A stretch of DNA of 64,000 bases from Lactobacillus melliventris (GTDB taxonomy: Bacteria > Bacillota > Bacilli > Lactobacillales > Lactobacillaceae), in assembly GCF_013346935.1 (NCBI RefSeq), contig NZ_JAAEEB010000001.1:62001-126000 (forward strand), read 5' to 3'. The translations under genes and the position numbers were made by a program. Numbering within the stretch: the stretch's first letter is position 1; every line of letters begins with the position of its first letter. Below, one piece after another: positions 5,840 to 35,047 of the stretch. The notes beneath the pieces were generated by a model, which did not search any database, had not been told where the DNA came from, and saw nothing but the letters and a program-made list of their open reading frames with translations.

Positions 5840-7237
5840 ATGGAAAGAAAATTAGATGCAAAATTAATTTGTTCAATTTTCGCAGCTGGACTGATGTCAT
5901 TTTCAGGTGTGCTAATTGAAACGGCAGGGAACGTTACTTTTCCAGTTTTAATGAATGATTTTCATGTTAATATGGCCACAGTACAATGGATGACAACGGG
6001 CTATTTACTGGTTGCTTCCATTATTATGCTACTATCAGCATATTTAAAAAGAAACTTTAGTTCGAAAAAGCTGTTTGTAATAGCCGCTTCTTTATTTATT
6101 TGCGGATTGGTGATCGACGCAGTTGCTAACCAATTTATTTTTTTAGTTATTGGTCGCGTAATTCAGGGCGCGGGCGCAGGAATAGCTATTCCCTTAATGT
6201 TTAATATCATTTTGGAAAGGACACCGCTTGATAAACTCGGCCTCCTTATGGGAATAGGAACAATGATTACTGCTGTAGCTCCAGCTTTAGGGCCAAGTTT
6301 TGGCGGGTTGGTTGTTAATAATTTAGGCTGGCGTTATATTTTTATCTTTATTATCCCCGTGATGGTAATATCTTTGATCATGGGCTTAACTTCAATAACA
6401 AGTCAAACCGAGAGCATTAAGCATACTAGGCTTGATACTACCGGCTTTCTGAGCATTGCTTTAACGTTTATTGGTTTAATTTTTGCTTTTAGCAACTTGT
6501 CTACAATTTTACAAAAACCGTTCATGTTTATTTTACCTTTAGCATTAGGAATAATCAGTTTAATCATTTTTATTAAGCACTCATTGAAAACTACTAATCC
6601 ATTGATTAATATTCGTGTTTTTAAAAACATCAGATTCACTCAAGGAATTACAGCCTACTTTATTTTCCAGATAAATACCTTGGGTTTGTCTTTCATCTTG
6701 CCTAATTATGTCCAAATTGTCAACCATTCTACTGCGATGACTGCGGGGCTATTACTACTAACCGGTGGGCTCGTAGGAGCAATTATGTCACCAATTAGTG
6801 GCAGGTTACTTGATAACTACGGACCAAAAAAGCCAATTATGACTGGAGCTGTTTTTGAAATAATTGGTGGCATATTATATTGTTTATTTGCTTCATCGTT
6901 AACCTCTGGCAAGATAATCTTGTTTTATACCATTACGATGCTGGGAATAGGTTTAGTAATGGGTGATACTATGACGGCTTCTATTGGTCAACTTGACGAA
7001 AAAGAAAGTACTGATGGTAACGGTCTGTTCAATATGGCACAGCAATTTGCTGGTGCGGTTGGCACTGCAGTTATTTCAGCCATCATGCAATTCGTAGAGC
7101 AGATGAGTAGTCAAAATTCTACTTCTGGAAAATACATTGATGCCGCACAAGTCGGTCTAATTTTTATTCTAATTATTGTCCTTATTGGTGTATACTTACT
7201 TTATCAGGCTACAAAACCAGTAAAAGCAAAGGAATGA
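5840..7237 (+). CDS. DHA2-family drug:H+ antiporter (EmrB/QacA-type MFS)
   Basis: A 465-residue integral membrane exporter with 14 predicted hydrophobic segments. It carries the DHA2 N-terminal signature ETAGNVTFPVLMNDF..VQWMTTGYLL, the conserved GRVIQGAGAGIAIPL of helix 4 and GPSFGG of motif C. Such proteins expel lipophilic drugs or toxic compounds using proton motive force. AGGAGG lies 7 nt before the ATG. The MarR gene follows after 4 nt, so exporter and regulator form one operon behind the palindrome at 5795. A paralogue of 462 residues lies at 51000 without an adjacent regulator. The substrate is unknown. Confidence 0.88.
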   Translation: MERKLDAKLICSIFAAGLMSFSGVLIETAGNVTFPVLMNDFHVNMATVQWMTTGYLLVASIIMLLSAYLKRNFSSKKLFVIAASLFICGLVIDAVANQFIFLVIGRVIQGAGAGIAIPLMFNIILERTPLDKLGLLMGIGTMITAVAPALGPSFGGLVVNNLGWRYIFIFIIPVMVISLIMGLTSITSQTESIKHTRLDTTGFLSIALTFIGLIFAFSNLSTILQKPFMFILPLALGIISLIIFIKHSLKTTNPLINIRVFKNIRFTQGITAYFIFQINTLGLSFILPNYVQIVNHSTAMTAGLLLLTGGLVGAIMSPISGRLLDNYGPKKPIMTGAVFEIIGGILYCLFASSLTSGKIILFYTITMLGIGLVMGDTMTASIGQLDEKESTDGNGLFNMAQQFAGAVGTAVISAIMQFVEQMSSQNSTSGKYIDAAQVGLIFILIIVLIGVYLLYQATKPVKAKE

Positions 7238-7241
7238 AATA

Positions 7242-7667
7242 ATGAAAAGATTAGGATTGGCATTGCAGAGAGTACAAAATACGTTTAACCGCAACGCTGA
7301 TCACTATGCCAGAAAAATAGGTCTTACTGGAACGCAAATGTTGATTATCGAATACTTATCTTCCTTTGCCCAAAATAAGCCAATTTATCAAAAAGACATT
7401 GAGCATGAATTCAATATTAGAAAGTCAACGGCTACCAATGTTTTACATTTAATGGCAGAAAAAGACCTAATTACGAAAAAAGTCAATCCACATGACACTC
7501 GATTAAAAGCAATCATCCTAACCCCTAAAGCTGTTAATTTAGAACAAAAAATTTCTAACTATGTTTTTCAGTCTGAGAATAGTTACGCTGCAATTCTTGG
7601 AACTGAAACTAAAAATGAGTTAGTAGAGAATTTACAGAAACTGAATGACGCTATTTCGGAAAAATAG
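7242..7667 (+). CDS. MarR-family transcriptional regulator
   Basis: A 141-residue winged-helix protein. After an N-terminal dimerisation helix comes the MarR core: LTGTQMLIIEYLSSF, IYQKDIEHEFNIRKSTATNVLHLMAEKDLITKK (helix-turn-helix) and the wing NPHDTRLKAIILT, where the D-x-R is the family hallmark. It starts 4 nt after the exporter stop, with AAGGA inside the end of the exporter gene. It probably represses this operon through the palindrome at 5795-5826, with ligand binding giving relief. The ligand is unknown. Confidence 0.88.
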   Translation: MKRLGLALQRVQNTFNRNADHYARKIGLTGTQMLIIEYLSSFAQNKPIYQKDIEHEFNIRKSTATNVLHLMAEKDLITKKVNPHDTRLKAIILTPKAVNLEQKISNYVFQSENSYAAILGTETKNELVENLQKLNDAISEK

Positions 7668-7725: not shown

Positions 7726-8871
<1,146 letters not shown>

Positions 8872-9032: not shown

Positions 9033-9156
9033 TTTTATTGTAAATAATAAAAGCTAAAATTCTGATTTTTAACATTTTTACATTACTTTATCGTTGGGCA
9101 TTAGCTATTAAAAATCATTTTTATATATCTTGATATTGTTCGCCTTTACAATAAAA
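9033..9156. repeat. Composite inverted repeat in the 497-bp guaB/ABC intergenic region
   Basis: TTTTATTGTAAA (9033-9044) is perfectly inverted at 9145-9156, and TGATTTTTAA (9063-9072) is perfectly inverted at 9108-9117, giving a nested, imperfect 124-bp fold. It could be a decayed small inverted-repeat element, overlapping operator sites or chance in AT-rich DNA. Apart from this repeat, the PurBox-like motifs and the leader ORF, the region 8872-9368 contains no recognisable gene. Confidence 0.4.
9135..9147 (-). promoter_or_regulatory. PurBox-like CGAAC motif 2 (inverted)
   Basis: On the minus strand this reads AAAGGCGAACAAT and shares GCGAACAA with motif 1. In Bacillus PurR sites the two arms are 16-17 nt apart, whereas here they are about 116 nt apart, so a PurR role for guaB is only tentative. 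Confidence 0.3.
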
Positions 9157-9197
9157 TAATAAAGCAATTAAATACTATTTAAAAACAATTAAAACTA

Positions 9198-9206
9198 TGT
9201 TAAAAT
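9198..9206 (+). promoter_or_regulatory. Extended -10 promoter of the leader-ABC operon
   Basis: TGtTAAAAT is an extended -10. A transcript starting near 9213 would carry the leader ORF (9257), the terminator hairpin (9295) and then the three ABC genes. Confidence 0.5.
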
Positions 9207-9256
9207 TATTTCTAATGCTGTTGATTAAATATCTATCTAATAATGAGGTTAAACCA

Positions 9257-9292
9257 ATGGCATTGGCAAAGTATGGTGATTTTGTTCAATAA
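9257..9292 (+). CDS. Putative 11-codon leader peptide MALAKYGDFVQ
   Basis: An ATG with GAGG at 8-nt spacing opens an 11-codon frame ending in TAA, three bases before the stem of an intrinsic terminator. The start codon itself lies in a small palindrome (CCAATG-G-CATTGG, 9254-9266). The arrangement is that of translation-coupled attenuation: a ribosome stalled in the leader could disturb the terminator stem and let transcription reach the ABC genes. Leader-controlled drug exporters of this type are known (bmrB-bmrCD of Bacillus), but the peptide itself is not recognised. Translation is inferred, not shown. Confidence 0.55.
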   Translation: MALAKYGDFVQ

Positions 9293-9294
9293 GA

Positions 9295-9335
9295 GCAATT
9301 ATTAAAGGACACTTTCCTTTGGTAATTGCCTTTTT
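9295..9335 (+). terminator. Attenuator-like terminator before the ABC exporter
   Basis: GCAATTATTAAAGGA and TCCTTTGGTAATTGC form a 15-bp stem (two G-U pairs) with the 5-nt loop CACTT, followed by C and five T. It lies between the only visible promoter and the ABC ATPase start at 9369. Confidence 0.8.
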
Positions 9336-9368
9336 GTGCCGGATTTGATAAAAAATGGAGTTTGAAAC

Positions 9369-10355
9369 ATGGTCGAAAATGCAATTGAAGTACATGATCT
9401 GTCAAAAAAATATGCGGTGGCCACCAGAGGCGAGACTTGGCATGCTATAGCAAAAAATATTTTTAAGCCAGAAAGAACGGTTGTTAATGCCGTTAAATCC
9501 TTAAACTTTACTATTAAACCAGGAGAGAAAGTAGGTTTTATTGGACAAAATGGTGCAGGTAAAACTACTACTATAAAGATGTTAACAGGTACTCTTTTTC
9601 CATCTTCAGGTTACTGCAGGGTCAATGGCTTTGATCCTACCAAAAGGACTAATGATTTTAAAAAATCAATTTCGGTGGTGATGGGAAACAGGTCACAACT
9701 TTTTCCCGATTTAACTCCCAGAGATTATTTAAAGCTCTTACAATCAATGTATGATATTTCTGAAACATCTTTTCAAGAAACAGTTAATAATCTAGCTCGA
9801 GTATTAAACGTTACAAGAAAGTTAGATACTCAAACACGTAAATTATCACTGGGAGAGAGGATGAAAATTGAATTTTTAGCGGGTGTAGCCACCAGACCTA
9901 AAGTGCTCTTTCTAGATGAGCCTACAATAGGGCTTGATGTTTTGGCAAAAAGAGACATCCGCAAATTCCTTTTGCAACTAAATAAAGAAGAAAAACTGAC
10001 CGTCTTCTTGACTTCCCATGATATGGAAGATATTGCGACTATCTGCGACCGCTTAATAATTGTTAATCACGGAGAAATTATGTGGAATGGTCAAAAACAG
10101 GATCTACTAGATAAATTCAGTAGTAATAAATACATTACTTTTGATAAATCAGAAACTTTTGCTGAGAAGAATATTGAGGGTAAAATAATCAATCAGGATG
10201 ATTTAACAATTACCATCAAAGTTCCAAATGAAGAAGTTGATGATATGATTGCATTCCTTGCCAAAAACAAGCAGGGTTCAAATTATCAAATAAATGAACT
10301 GAAGCTGGAAGACATTATCTTAGAATTATTTGCCGAGGAGAATCAAAAATGTTAA
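9369..10355 (+). CDS. ABC transporter ATP-binding protein (COG4586-like exporter)
   Basis: A 328-residue cytosolic ATPase. Walker A GQNGAGKTTT is near residue 59, the signature is LSLGERMKIEF (a variant of LSGGQ), Walker B is VLFLDEPTIGLD and the switch histidine is in FLTSHDMED. A C-terminal extension of about 90 residues after the nucleotide domain fits the DrrA/COG4586 group rather than the short 230-residue type. It overlaps the next permease by 7 nt. With the two ABC-2 permeases downstream it forms a heteromeric efflux system of unknown substrate. Expression appears to depend on the leader and terminator at 9257-9335. Confidence 0.85.
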   Translation: MVENAIEVHDLSKKYAVATRGETWHAIAKNIFKPERTVVNAVKSLNFTIKPGEKVGFIGQNGAGKTTTIKMLTGTLFPSSGYCRVNGFDPTKRTNDFKKSISVVMGNRSQLFPDLTPRDYLKLLQSMYDISETSFQETVNNLARVLNVTRKLDTQTRKLSLGERMKIEFLAGVATRPKVLFLDEPTIGLDVLAKRDIRKFLLQLNKEEKLTVFLTSHDMEDIATICDRLIIVNHGEIMWNGQKQDLLDKFSSNKYITFDKSETFAEKNIEGKIINQDDLTITIKVPNEEVDDMIAFLAKNKQGSNYQINELKLEDIILELFAEENQKC

Positions 10356-11146
10356 AAACATACCGTGCAGTAAGTAAAATTTCCCTCAAGTCTATTTTAG
10401 CGAATAAAAGCAGTGTGGTGATTTTGCTACTGCAAGCTCTTGTGCCAAGTATAGTAATGTTTTATCTGTGGTCTTTAATATTAAATCACGGGCAAACAGT
10501 GGGCGGATTTACTAAAAATCAAATTGTTATTTACTACATTGGCGTTAACTTTATCAATTCCTTTGTCTGGTATGCAATTGATTGGGAATTAAATGATGAT
10601 ATTCATTCGGGTGAATTGTCAAACATTGTTCATCGACCAATAGCAATTGAAAAATATTATTTCGCTAAAATGGTTGGCGACCGATTAGCAAATCTACTTC
10701 TGCTGGCTCCAATACTGATAATTGGAATATTATATATTCTAGTAAAAAATTTATTGCAGATATCACTGATAGTGCTGTTGGAATTTGCCTTTAGCATTAT
10801 TATGTCAGCGGTGCTTTGGTTTCTTTTCTCTTACATCATAGGTAGTGTTGCTTATTGGTTTGATAACCTCTTCTTTGTTTTACTAGTAAAAGAAGTGTTG
10901 GTAAACTTGCTGGCTGGTTTTTATTTTCCCTTAGAAATCTTGCCGCCTTTTTTGGTAAAAATAACCAAATGCTTACCTTTTCAGTATTTTAGTTCTTTTC
11001 CCATAGATACTTTGGTAAAAGGGCTCTCCCTACAATCTTGGCTTAATAATACTGGAATTGAGATTGCTTGGGCAGTTAACTTTTATGTAATTGTACAAAT
11101 AGTTAATAGAAAAGGGCTTCAGAGATATTCTGATGTAATGGGTTAG
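10349..11146 (+). CDS. ABC-2 type permease subunit 1 (COG4587-like)
   Basis: A 265-residue membrane protein with about six hydrophobic segments (from about residues 20, 60, 110, 140, 170 and 230). SSVVILLLQALVPSIVMFYLW and LLAGFYFPLEILP are typical of ABC-2 exporter permeases in the COG4587/COG3694 pair. Its ATG overlaps the end of the ATPase gene, implying translational coupling. No substrate-specific feature is visible. It most likely pairs with the product of the following gene. Confidence 0.78.
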   Translation: MLKTYRAVSKISLKSILANKSSVVILLLQALVPSIVMFYLWSLILNHGQTVGGFTKNQIVIYYIGVNFINSFVWYAIDWELNDDIHSGELSNIVHRPIAIEKYYFAKMVGDRLANLLLLAPILIIGILYILVKNLLQISLIVLLEFAFSIIMSAVLWFLFSYIIGSVAYWFDNLFFVLLVKEVLVNLLAGFYFPLEILPPFLVKITKCLPFQYFSSFPIDTLVKGLSLQSWLNNTGIEIAWAVNFYVIVQIVNRKGLQRYSDVMG

Positions 11147-11148
11147 AT

Positions 11149-11931
11149 ATGAAAAATAAATTTAAACTGATCGGTTCTTTAATCAAGATAGCCTTTTTAG
11201 AGACTATTAGTTTTAGGTTGGATACTGTATTTGGTATTATTTCCTCAGTACTTTGGTTGGGTATCCCAATTGCTTTCTTTAAAGTAATTTATTTAAATGT
11301 TGACACTGTTGGAGGCTGGAGTTTTAAGGAATGCCTCTTATTAGTTGGGGTTTATACTATGCTAGATGGCTTCCTGATGGCCTTCTTAGTCAAATCGATG
11401 CCTAAAATGGAAGCTGATATTAGAGAGGGTACGCTTGATTCGGTGCTCCTAAAGCCAATTAATACTAAACTATTTTATTTTTTAAGTTCCATTGAATTTA
11501 CTCAACTAATAAATTCCGTTTTGGGACTGGTAGTAATTATTTATGCGTGTCAAGGAATAAAAATTAGTCTTATCCAACTAGTTTGTTTCTTATTTTCCTG
11601 TGTATTAGGCTGCATATTGTATTATTCATTATGGTATCTCTGGACAATTTCAGCTTTTTGGTTTCCAACTAATTTTGGCAGAAATGATTTATTTTTAAGT
11701 ATGATACAAATGAGTCGTTATCCTGCAAGTATTTATCGTGGCCTGGGCAATATAATATTTAATTTTATTTTGCCTTTTGGCCTAGTTGCATGCCCCGCAA
11801 CAATTATTCTATTAAGGCCAGAAGAATGGCATATTTTGCTACTACAGCTTTTAGTTGCTTTAATATTTGTAGTACTGGATCATGTAATCTGGAATTTAGG
11901 CCTCAAGAAGTATGATGGAGCTGGTAGATAG
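11149..11931 (+). CDS. ABC-2 type permease subunit 2 (COG3694-like)
   Basis: A 260-residue membrane protein with about six hydrophobic helices. FRLDTVFGIISSVLWLGIPIAFF, the cytosolic stretch EADIREGTLDSVLLKPIN and SRYPASIYRG match the partner permease of COG4586/4587 exporters. It starts 2 nt after the previous stop. No clear terminator follows; the next 440 bp hold a broken antitoxin-like gene and the copper promoter. Confidence 0.78.
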   Translation: MKNKFKLIGSLIKIAFLETISFRLDTVFGIISSVLWLGIPIAFFKVIYLNVDTVGGWSFKECLLLVGVYTMLDGFLMAFLVKSMPKMEADIREGTLDSVLLKPINTKLFYFLSSIEFTQLINSVLGLVVIIYACQGIKISLIQLVCFLFSCVLGCILYYSLWYLWTISAFWFPTNFGRNDLFLSMIQMSRYPASIYRGLGNIIFNFILPFGLVACPATIILLRPEEWHILLLQLLVALIFVVLDHVIWNLGLKKYDGAGR

Positions 11932-12030: not shown

Positions 12031-12233
12031 GTGAAAGACGAACTAGTTACAGTTAGTTTAGATAATGCAGTAGTAAAAAATGCTAAGTTTAATTTGGAAA
12101 AATATGGTATTTCAGTTGGTAAATATCTCCAGTTAATGTGCTACTGGCTGCGGAAAATAAAACAGAACTTAAGCAAATAATGTTAGATAAAAATGACCTC
12201 ACTCAATGGTTAAAGCGATTAGATGCCGATTGA
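12031..12233 (+). pseudogene. Frameshifted RelB/DinJ-like antitoxin remnant
   Basis: A GTG after AAGGG opens a frame reading MKDELVTVSLDNAVVKNAKF then LEKYGISVGKYLQLM, similar in layout to the ribbon-helix-helix start of RelB/DinJ antitoxins. It then runs into CYWLRK and a stop at 12178. Shifting one frame near 12136-12141 gives LLAAENKTELKQIM and LTQWLKRLDAD with a stop at 12231, a plausible continuation. The gene therefore looks broken by a small indel. No toxin gene lies next to it. The family call rests on a short match; the two-frame structure is seen directly. Confidence 0.5.
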
Positions 12234-12241
12234 TAGTGCTG

Positions 12242-12273
12242 AAACTTACTGATGTTCTCAGTAAGTTTTTTTT
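12242..12273 (+). terminator. Intrinsic terminator before the copper operon
   Basis: AAACTTACTGA / TCAGTAAGTTT, a perfect 11-bp stem with a 5-nt loop followed by a T run. It insulates the copper promoter from upstream transcription. Confidence 0.85.
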
Positions 12274-34671: not shown

Positions 34672-35034
34672 GGGGGTGTTTTGGGATTCGACAGGCGTAG
34701 ATTCGCATTGACTGCGGTTCGTAGGTCACGTCTACGTAAAAACGTCACAGTTTTATAACTGCAAATAAAGAAAATTCTTACGCATTAGCTGCCTAGTTTA
34801 GGCGCATGTGTTGCTTGTTTTCGGATTACTCACGTCTGAATTCAAGTATCAACTTAGTGAGTTACGTTTGACTACCTCATCTGAATAGTTAAAAAGAGTC
34901 ATTCCAGGTTAGCTAGTCCATACTAGCCCTGTTATATGGCGTTTTGGACTAGTGAAATTCAAATAATATAACTATGATCGTAGATGTCAGTGACGGAGTG
35001 CGTTTGGACAGGGGTTCAATTCCCCTCACCTCCA
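34672..35034 (+). ncRNA. ssrA: Transfer-messenger RNA
   Basis: A 363-nt tmRNA that rescues stalled ribosomes with SmpB. The tRNA-like ends pair as GGGGGTG (34672-34678) with CACCTCC (35027-35033), followed by discriminator A. GGATTCGACAGGC and GGTTCAATTCC (T arm) are the conserved tRNA-like parts. The tag frame at 34761-34796 reads ANKENSYALAA then TAG. CCA is not encoded (A is followed by TA). Pseudoknot-like pairings occupy the middle. A terminator follows at once. Confidence 0.96.
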
Positions 35035-35047
35035 TAAATATATTAAT

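What the first reader, a model, noticed from the sequence alone, without database searches (positions are those of the whole stretch)
9198..11931. Leader peptide plus terminator in front of an ABC exporter: candidate attenuation system
Promoter, an 11-codon ORF with a good ribosome site (MALAKYGDFVQ), a 15-bp terminator stem starting 3 nt after its stop, then three ABC exporter genes. The leader start codon sits in its own small palindrome. This is the layout of drug- or amino-acid-sensing attenuation (compare bmrB-bmrCD), but the peptide is unknown to me. Inference: ribosome stalling in the leader would release the terminator.
Basis: partly seen in the sequence, partly recalled or inferred. 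Interest (0 to 1): 0.72.

Follow-up and report, generated by a model that had tools for sequence, protein, structure and literature searches.

The report
Terminator-gated leader before ABC exporter
In a Lactobacillus related to a bee-gut species, a drug-exporter-type operon has a likely built-in off switch in its own RNA: a hairpin that stops transcription early and that a ribosome working on a tiny upstream reading frame could hold open, a known style of control in a new place.

Summary
The layout is real. It has an extended -10 promoter (9198-9206), an 11-codon ORF with a ribosome site (9257-9292), a 15-bp terminator (9295-9329) and then an ABC ATPase plus two ABC-2 permeases. The gene upstream diverges, so as far as the ORFs show the terminator acts only on the exporter's own transcript.

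Nine of the 11 genus orthologues at 63% identity or more carry the promoter, leader and terminator, one copy per genome. One of the other two lacks it and one is cut off at a contig end. I rate a transcription attenuator as strongly supported.

The leader-peptide claim is weaker. The amino acids are not conserved. In sister species the ORF runs into or through the terminator, and in L. helsingborgensis it breaks after five codons. What is shared is an RNA stem that pairs the 5' end with the ORF's start codon; it covaries, but it is a minor fold in six of the nine. No antiterminator was found.

Best reading: a ribosome at the leader's end covers the terminator's 5' arm (as in MsrDL), or translates into it (as in bmrB), with initiation damped by the 5' hairpin. 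The trigger is unknown. A new member of a known kind.

The parts
9198..9206 (+). extended -10 promoter element (TG-T-TAAAAT); transcript start inferred near 9212-9214
   Evidence: consensus scan; TGnTARAAT kept in 9 of 9 leaders; start site is inference
9212..9266 (+). 5'-terminal hairpin (stem I): 9212-9223 pairs with 9255-9266, burying the leader AUG, with the SD in its upper part
   Evidence: (-12.9 kcal/mol, z -3.45); RNAalifold; pair counts; in the six clade B leaders the mean probability of its pairs is only 0.17-0.30
9245..9248 (+). Shine-Dalgarno GAGG of the leader ORF
   Evidence: AGG kept in 8 of 9 leaders, lost in L. helsingborgensis
9257..9292 (+). leader ORF MALAKYGDFVQ-stop (11 codons)
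   Evidence: MALAKYGKYVQ-stop in G038 (read)
9295..9335 (+). intrinsic terminator, 15-bp stem 9295-9329 and T-run 9331-9335
   Evidence: (-16.7 kcal/mol); a hairpin with T-run in 9 of 9 leaders
9369..10355 (+). ABC exporter ATP-binding protein (DrrA-like, below the DrrA cut-off)
10349..11146 (+). ABC-2 permease, PF06182 ABC2_membrane_6
11149..11931 (+). ABC-2 permease, PF06182 ABC2_membrane_6
7726..8871 (-). divergent neighbour, IMP dehydrogenase / GMP reductase family (context: the terminator does not serve an upstream gene)

Best explanation
A ribosome-controlled transcription attenuator of the exporter operon. Transcription starts near 9212 and by default ends at the hairpin 9295-9335, 33 nt before the exporter's start codon. 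The 5' end of the RNA pairs with the leader's start codon and keeps leader translation low. When a ribosome does load and dwells at the end of the leader, in the window species on the last two or three codons or the UAA, it covers up to 9 of the 15 bases of the terminator's 5' arm, the hairpin cannot form and RNA polymerase runs on into the exporter genes. In sister species the ORF reads into or through the terminator, so a moving ribosome would have the same effect. No alternative antiterminator hairpin is needed. Shown: the parts, their conservation, the geometry. Inferred: transcription start, termination in vivo, leader translation, gating by the hairpin. Unknown: the signal; translation stress from ribosome-targeting compounds is the likeliest by analogy.
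For: Promoter, leader and terminator stand in front of 9 of the 11 genus orthologues at 63% identity or more (one cut off at a contig end, one lacks it), as a single copy per genome. The upstream gene diverges in the window, G038 and L. helsingborgensis. Masking a ribosome with its P-site at codon 9, 10 or 11 reduces the window terminator from -16.7 to -10.5, -7.3 and -4.4 kcal/mol; at codons 1-8 nothing changes. In G030 the ORF runs through the terminator and P-sites from codon 11 onward dismantle it. In L. helsingborgensis an inner ORF, with GTTCAA in the same frame, also runs through it. Stem I pairs in 98.6% of cells with 4 pairs changed on both sides; 0 of 500 shuffles reach the covariation score (4 of 500 reach the count of pairs changed on both sides), and slid controls pair in 25-57%. 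Precedent: MsrDL, stalled at its UAA, obstructs a terminator (PMC10314930, abstract and passages); bmrB has its terminator inside the ORF (PMC4191407, sections 14, 15 and part 1 of 17).
Against: The leader's amino acids are not conserved, and between window and G038 the leader changes faster than the ATPase gene. L. helsingborgensis has lost the SD and its first ORF is 5 codons; the inner ATG has no clear ribosome site by eye. In clade B stem I is not the preferred fold (mean pair probability 0.17-0.30), and opening the start costs no more than in shuffles in G030 (181 of 400); G038 is not significant either (57 of 400). The terminator's covariation is weak (39 of 500 shuffles as good). No NusG-type TTNTTT pause motif lies before the T-run in four of the five leaders checked; only L. 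helsingborgensis has one, near its 5' end. How a ribosome would arrive in time is therefore open. The four more distant orthologues (50-64% ATPase identity) lack the leader. No expression data were available.
Confidence: 0.5

Rival explanations
1. One reading: the leader is a drug- or amino-acid-sensing peptide that stalls the ribosome at defined codons and so releases the terminator.
For: An ORF with ribosome site ends next to the terminator in window and G038. VQ (GTTCAA) lies at the same place, just ahead of the terminator, in the open frame of every lineage (read; in L. helsingborgensis only in the frame of the inner ORF). Exporters and resistance genes are known to use such leaders.
Against: The residues before VQ differ between lineages (DF, KY, II, IG, IY; read). 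No run of one amino acid and no rare codons: Met aside, the codons used make up 17-80% of their synonymous sets in 11 window genes. The frame is broken in L. helsingborgensis. No +x+ motif of the kind given for MefAL and ErmDL (motif; the leader was compared by eye).
Confidence: 0.2
2. An RNA-only switch: stem I is the sensor (bound by a protein or small molecule, or two competing folds) and controls the terminator without leader translation; the ORF is incidental.
For: Stem I is kept while SD and ORF decay in L. helsingborgensis. In clade B two folds of the 5' part lie within 0.7 kcal/mol. 410 of 5000 shuffled leaders hold an SD-ORF anyway.
Against: No structure was found that excludes the terminator: the best upstream partner of its 5' arm is no better than shuffles (487, 118, 290, 253 and 206 of 500 as good), and it forms in 12 of 12 ribosome-masked full-length folds. 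No Rfam family at its gathering score. A plain A-U-rich stem is not aptamer-like (judgement).
Confidence: 0.15
3. No regulated switch: a leaky terminator that merely sets a low constant level, or a separate short RNA gene of about 125 nt whose read-through feeds the exporter.
For: Promoter, structured RNA and terminator would also fit a small RNA gene. No antiterminator. The peptide is not conserved.
Against: Only 31-34 nt separate the T-run from the conserved exporter ATG (read), too little for a separate promoter unless its -35 lies in the terminator. No site of 9 of 12 or better is there. The one weak candidate I saw by eye in the window (TTGCCT-17-TAAAAA, 8 of 12) would start transcription at about the exporter's SD. 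The start-codon region can pair with the 5' end in all lineages.
Confidence: 0.13

Closest known systems
msrDL-msrD attenuator of streptococci (PMC10314930; abstract and passages seen)
   Same: Very short ORF ending in UAA just ahead of an intrinsic terminator, resistance-type gene downstream, terminator blocked directly by a ribosome at the stop codon; no antiterminator is named in the passages seen
   Different: MsrDL (MYLIFM) is a proven macrolide-stalled peptide; here the peptide varies, stalling is untested, the start codon is in a 5' hairpin and the gene is an ABC-2 exporter rather than an ABC-F factor
bmrB-bmrCD of Bacillus subtilis (PMC4191407; abstract, sections 14 and 15 and part 1 of 17 seen)
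   Same: Leader ORF controls an intrinsic terminator before an ABC multidrug exporter; the terminator lies inside the leader ORF, as in clade B and the inner ORF of L. helsingborgensis here
   Different: bmrB has 53 codons and a proposed antiterminator and anti-antiterminator; none found here; AbrB control not examined; drug induction not tested here
vmlR leader of Bacillus subtilis (PMC9226507; abstract and sections 18 and 23 seen)
   Same: Tiny uORF sits inside the first stem-loop, and two of three natural peptide variants tested work at least as well as the wild type
   Different: There stem-loop 1 is an anti-antiterminator opposed by an antiterminator; no such pairing here; vmlR encodes an ABC-F factor
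Predicted 'ABC-leader' upstream of a multidrug export operon in L. gasseri and L. johnsonii (PMC2965389; section 9 and passages seen)
   Same: A terminator-based attenuator predicted before a multidrug exporter in Lactobacillus
   Different: Described as able to form an antiterminator, with no leader ORF named in what I saw; alignment and locus not seen, so relatedness could not be tested

Membership tests
Ribosome-mediated transcription attenuators (leader-peptide type) | intrinsic terminator between the operon's own promoter and its first gene | tested here: met
   9 of 11 genus orthologues; promoter activity itself not measured
Ribosome-mediated transcription attenuators (leader-peptide type) | short translated ORF whose ribosome position can decide terminator formation | tested here: inconclusive
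   geometry met in window, G038 and G030, the three leaders examined; translation not measured; first ORF broken in L. helsingborgensis
Ribosome-mediated transcription attenuators (leader-peptide type) | stalling by a specific drug or amino acid shortage | not testable with these tools
   needs toeprinting or ribosome profiling; no regulatory codon run in the leader
bmrB/vmlR subtype with antiterminator | antiterminator that excludes the terminator | tested here: not met
   5 leaders tested; 6 leaders folded with ribosome masks
msrDL subtype (ribosome itself obstructs the terminator) | stop codon so close that a ribosome there covers the 5' arm | tested here: met
   9 stem bases covered in window and in G038; in clade B the ORF goes into the stem instead
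msrDL subtype (ribosome itself obstructs the terminator) | conserved stalling peptide | tested here: not met
Known Rfam riboswitch or leader families | covariance-model match at the family's gathering score | tested here: not met
   only a tmRNA in the window; nothing at gathering score in 9100-9420
DrrA-type ABC-2 exporters | ATPase at or above the TIGR01188 cut-off | tested here: not met
   196 bits against a cut-off of 312; the substrate is therefore not assigned

The most novel reading that the evidence does not exclude
A peptide-blind attenuator: the 5' end of the RNA competes with initiating ribosomes for the leader's start codon, and the mere passage or dwelling of any ribosome over the leader, not a sensed peptide, opens the terminator. 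Selection keeps the start-codon hairpin and the reach of the ORF into the terminator while the amino acids, the stop position and even the start site drift between sister species.
Probability: 0.27. Interest if true: 0.6.

Novelty: new member of a known kind. Interest (0 to 1): 0.42.

Why it matters
It adds a likely ribosome-controlled attenuator to an ABC exporter in Lactobacillus, where the only comparable case in the listings I saw is a 2010 prediction. It also gives a natural comparison, the same terminator with the ORF ending before it, inside it or beyond it in sister species, for asking whether such leaders sense a peptide or simply ribosome traffic. If it responds to antibiotics, bee-associated lactobacilli would have an RNA-level sensor for drugs given to hives (antibiotic use in apiculture is in the abstract of PMC7519052, seen as a search listing; the link is inference).

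Tried and rejected
Terminator of an upstream gene: rejected for window, G038 and L. helsingborgensis, where the neighbour diverges. In the four clade B neighbourhoods fetched of six a gene lies upstream on the same strand; its G030 copy is an adenosine deaminase, the other three were matched to it by eye. In G030 it is followed by its own A-U hairpin, 9 bp and -5.6 kcal/mol. For the second clade B locus I gave the wrong strand, so that row says nothing.

Antiterminator: looked for by ribosome-masked folding in 6 leaders (the terminator forms in 12 of 12 masked full-length folds) and by duplex search against shuffles in 5; nothing above chance. An apparent compensated pair between the loop of stem I and the terminator arm in window and G038, noticed by eye, is covered by that result.

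RNA thermometer: in five leaders the start-codon opening cost falls smoothly between 25 and 50 degrees with no switch.

Amino-acid attenuation: no run of one codon.

Regulon: the leader model finds nothing else convincing in 75 genus genomes (next best E 0.027) or 301 family genomes (best other E 0.007); it gave no leader match in the distant orthologue loci L071-L074 (best E 0.56, a piece of L073 beyond the operon's end). Both genome scans used stricter filters that lose some weak matches.

Leader search by DNA alone found 8 of the 9 leaders; it missed that of L. helsingborgensis, whose listed hit lies elsewhere. The remaining hits are 20-45 bases long; of these L056 was read and by eye lies in coding sequence.

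More strains: a viral-contig scan found none.

Pattern search was mis-spaced and is uninformative. One search was a first alignment with some coordinates truncated; replaced. In one search loci on the minus strand had not been turned; corrected. In one search the printed stem I energies are not comparable for window, G038 and helsingborgensis because their inner pairs differ from the consensus; I use only the pair probabilities and the clade B energies. Terminators upstream of 18 paralogous ATPases were listed and not followed up. PDB searches gave general ABC ATPases for the ATPase and nothing for the second permease.

Dropped rows: one search counts 8 distinct of 9 sequences; model R1 was built from 8 of the 9 (G064 left out; its row in A2 equals G028's).
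Full report
What is there. The finding's coordinates hold. On the + strand the window has an extended -10 element (TG 9198-9199, TAAAAT 9201-9206), a Shine-Dalgarno GAGG at 9245-9248, an 11-codon ORF at 9257-9292 (MALAKYGDFVQ, UAA), a 15-bp hairpin at 9295-9329 followed by T-run 9331-9335, and three genes at 9369-10355, 10349-11146 and 11149-11931. The first gene encodes an ABC ATPase (PF00005; nearest curated family DrrA, 196 bits against a cut-off of 312). The other two are ABC2_membrane_6 permeases, PF06182. No curated model assigns a substrate. The hairpin folds at -16.7 kcal/mol with none of 200 shuffles as good. The divergent neighbour is an IMP dehydrogenase / GMP reductase family gene. 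Rfam has nothing in the stretch at gathering score.

Is it more than chance? As single matches the promoter and the ORF are unremarkable. Promoter-like sites are common here (30 found against 19.6 +/- 4.4 in shuffles), 410 of 5000 shuffled leaders contain an SD-preceded ORF of at least 9 codons, and 165 of 5000 have one that ends beside the stem position. The combination is unique in the window. One search found 75 terminator-like stems; of the 55 that do not lie inside a same-strand ORF of 100 codons or more, only this one has no such ORF ending just upstream, an ORF start shortly downstream and a short SD-ORF ending at the stem.

Relatives. In 75 genomes of the genus (window's own included), 22 have an ATPase match at E 1e-40 or better, and 11 of these are orthologues at 63-100% identity. 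Nine carry the promoter, leader and terminator. One (G063) is cut off 27 nt upstream of the start codon and cannot be judged. One (G074, 63%) lacks it. Three more orthologues, found by permease 2 in 397 family genomes (4 of 397 matched, window's own included), and G074 have ATPase identities of 50-64%. They give no leader match to the model and show no comparable layout upstream. A covariance model of the leader finds the same nine genomes at E 1e-16 or better, once each on the leader strand (in six of them the terminator's reverse strand also scores weakly), and nothing else below E 0.027 in the genus or below E 0.007 among 301 family genomes. The element therefore appears confined to one branch. 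Its only named cultured member here is L. helsingborgensis, genome G017 (that this species lives in bees is recalled); G038 is an uncultured Lactobacillus MAG.

The terminator serves the exporter's own transcript. In window, G038 and L. helsingborgensis the upstream gene diverges. In the four of six clade B neighbourhoods that I fetched (G028, G030, G025, G019) another gene lies upstream on the same strand; the G030 copy is an adenosine deaminase, followed by its own A-U hairpin and then by the conserved promoter. Between T-run and the conserved exporter start lie 31-34 nt (read), with no promoter of 9 of 12 or better in the window. In G030 an in-frame ATG lies 12 nt further upstream, so the exporter's true start there is uncertain.

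The ORF is not conserved as a peptide. G038 has MALAKYGKYVQ-stop: 4 of 33 bases differ, giving 1 synonymous and 2 non-synonymous codons. The ATPase gene differs at 28 of 984 bases, with 25 synonymous and 3 non-synonymous codons. In the six clade B genomes the ORF begins MTVSKCMMI(I/G)VQNLKQFC and runs into the terminator (read). In G030 it is 33 codons and goes right through it, and four others read the same way. In G019 an extra T in the 3' arm ends it there after 24 codons. In L. helsingborgensis the SD is gone and the first ORF is MTFPN-stop. An inner ATG opens a 28-codon ORF, with the invariant GTTCAA in the same frame, that also runs through the terminator to 3 nt before the exporter's start. 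The residues before VQ differ between lineages. This fits selection for an ORF that reaches the terminator better than selection for a peptide sequence, but the sample is small: window/G038, clade B and L. helsingborgensis.

The 5' stem. RNAalifold on nine leaders finds, besides the terminator, a stem pairing the first bases of the RNA with the leader's start codon. On that structure 98.6% of cells pair and 4 pairs change on both sides (4 of 500 shuffles reach that count). 0 of 500 shuffles reach the covariation score, and sliding the partner by 1-3 columns leaves 25-57% paired. The caution is that these changes come from few evolutionary events. Taken alone, the stem is clear in window (start-region opening cost 9.0 kcal/mol, 13 of 400 shuffles as high) and L. 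helsingborgensis (7.8, 14 of 400), not significant in G038 (7.1, 57 of 400), and not special in G030 (4.0, 181 of 400). In clade B it lies 0.7 kcal/mol above a competing fold, with mean pair probability 0.17-0.30. I treat it as a real but partly metastable structure.

How the switch could work. I searched for an antiterminator as in bmrB or vmlR. The best upstream partner of the terminator's 5' arm is no better than in shuffles in any of five leaders (487, 118, 290, 253 and 206 of 500 as good) and much weaker than the terminator itself. In six leaders folded full length with a ribosome masked at two early positions, the terminator forms in 12 of 12 folds. What remains is direct obstruction. 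With an assumed footprint of 14 nt behind to 16 nt ahead of the P-site (a 16-nt edge is reported by toeprint in PMC9226507), a ribosome at codons 1-8 leaves the window terminator intact, while at codons 9, 10 and 11 it falls from -16.7 to -10.5, -7.3 and -4.4 kcal/mol. G038 behaves alike. In G030 codons 11 onward dismantle it. That is the MsrDL arrangement in window and G038 (PMC10314930) and the bmrB arrangement in clade B and L. helsingborgensis (PMC4191407). The 5' stem would damp leader initiation and so favour termination by default; this step is inference. No TTNTTT pause motif precedes the T-run in window, G038, G028 or G030; L. helsingborgensis has one near its 5' end. Timing between ribosome and polymerase is open.

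What is known. Ribosome-mediated attenuation of a multidrug ABC exporter is established for bmrCD. A tiny uORF inside the first stem-loop, tolerant of different peptides, is established for vmlR (PMC9226507, sections 18 and 23). A uORF that senses several drugs, with tetracycline stalling ribosomes at its start codon, is established for toiL (PMC12121999, abstract and one section). A 2010 prediction lists an 'ABC-leader' before a multidrug export operon in L. gasseri and L. johnsonii (PMC2965389, section 9); I could not compare sequences. Seven literature searches (titles and abstract starts of the listed papers) showed no report of this leader.

Verdict. Attenuator: strongly supported by anatomy and conservation (my estimate 0.85). 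Control by leader translation: more likely than not. Drug sensing by a specific peptide: weak. A new member of a known kind, with a start-codon hairpin and a drifting ORF as its points of interest.

Noticed in passing
L075, L076, L078, L080 (genomes G028, G030, G025, G019): An adenosine deaminase gene (G030 copy; others matched by eye) sits between the IMP dehydrogenase family gene and the exporter leader in these clade B genomes but not in the window, G038 or L. helsingborgensis: gain or loss at a conserved site.
   Followed up: partly
9284-9289 and 9331-9339, and the equivalents in the relatives: GTTCAA before the stem and TTTTTGTGC at and just after the T-run are invariant in all nine leaders although the flanks vary; RNAalifold pairs the two. 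The reason is unknown.
   Followed up: partly
5840-7667: An EmrB-type MFS efflux gene followed by a MarR-type regulator gene lies just beyond the divergent neighbour, so two drug-transport-type units flank it.
   Followed up: no
12031-12239: A possible small gene or remnant (GTG start, 49 codons, by eye) between the exporter and a cupredoxin gene followed by what looks like a P-type ATPase gene (by eye), with a terminator-like stem at 12242-12268; the 49-aa piece has no Pfam match.
   Followed up: partly
34672-35037: tmRNA gene with tag ANKENSYALAA.
   Followed up: no
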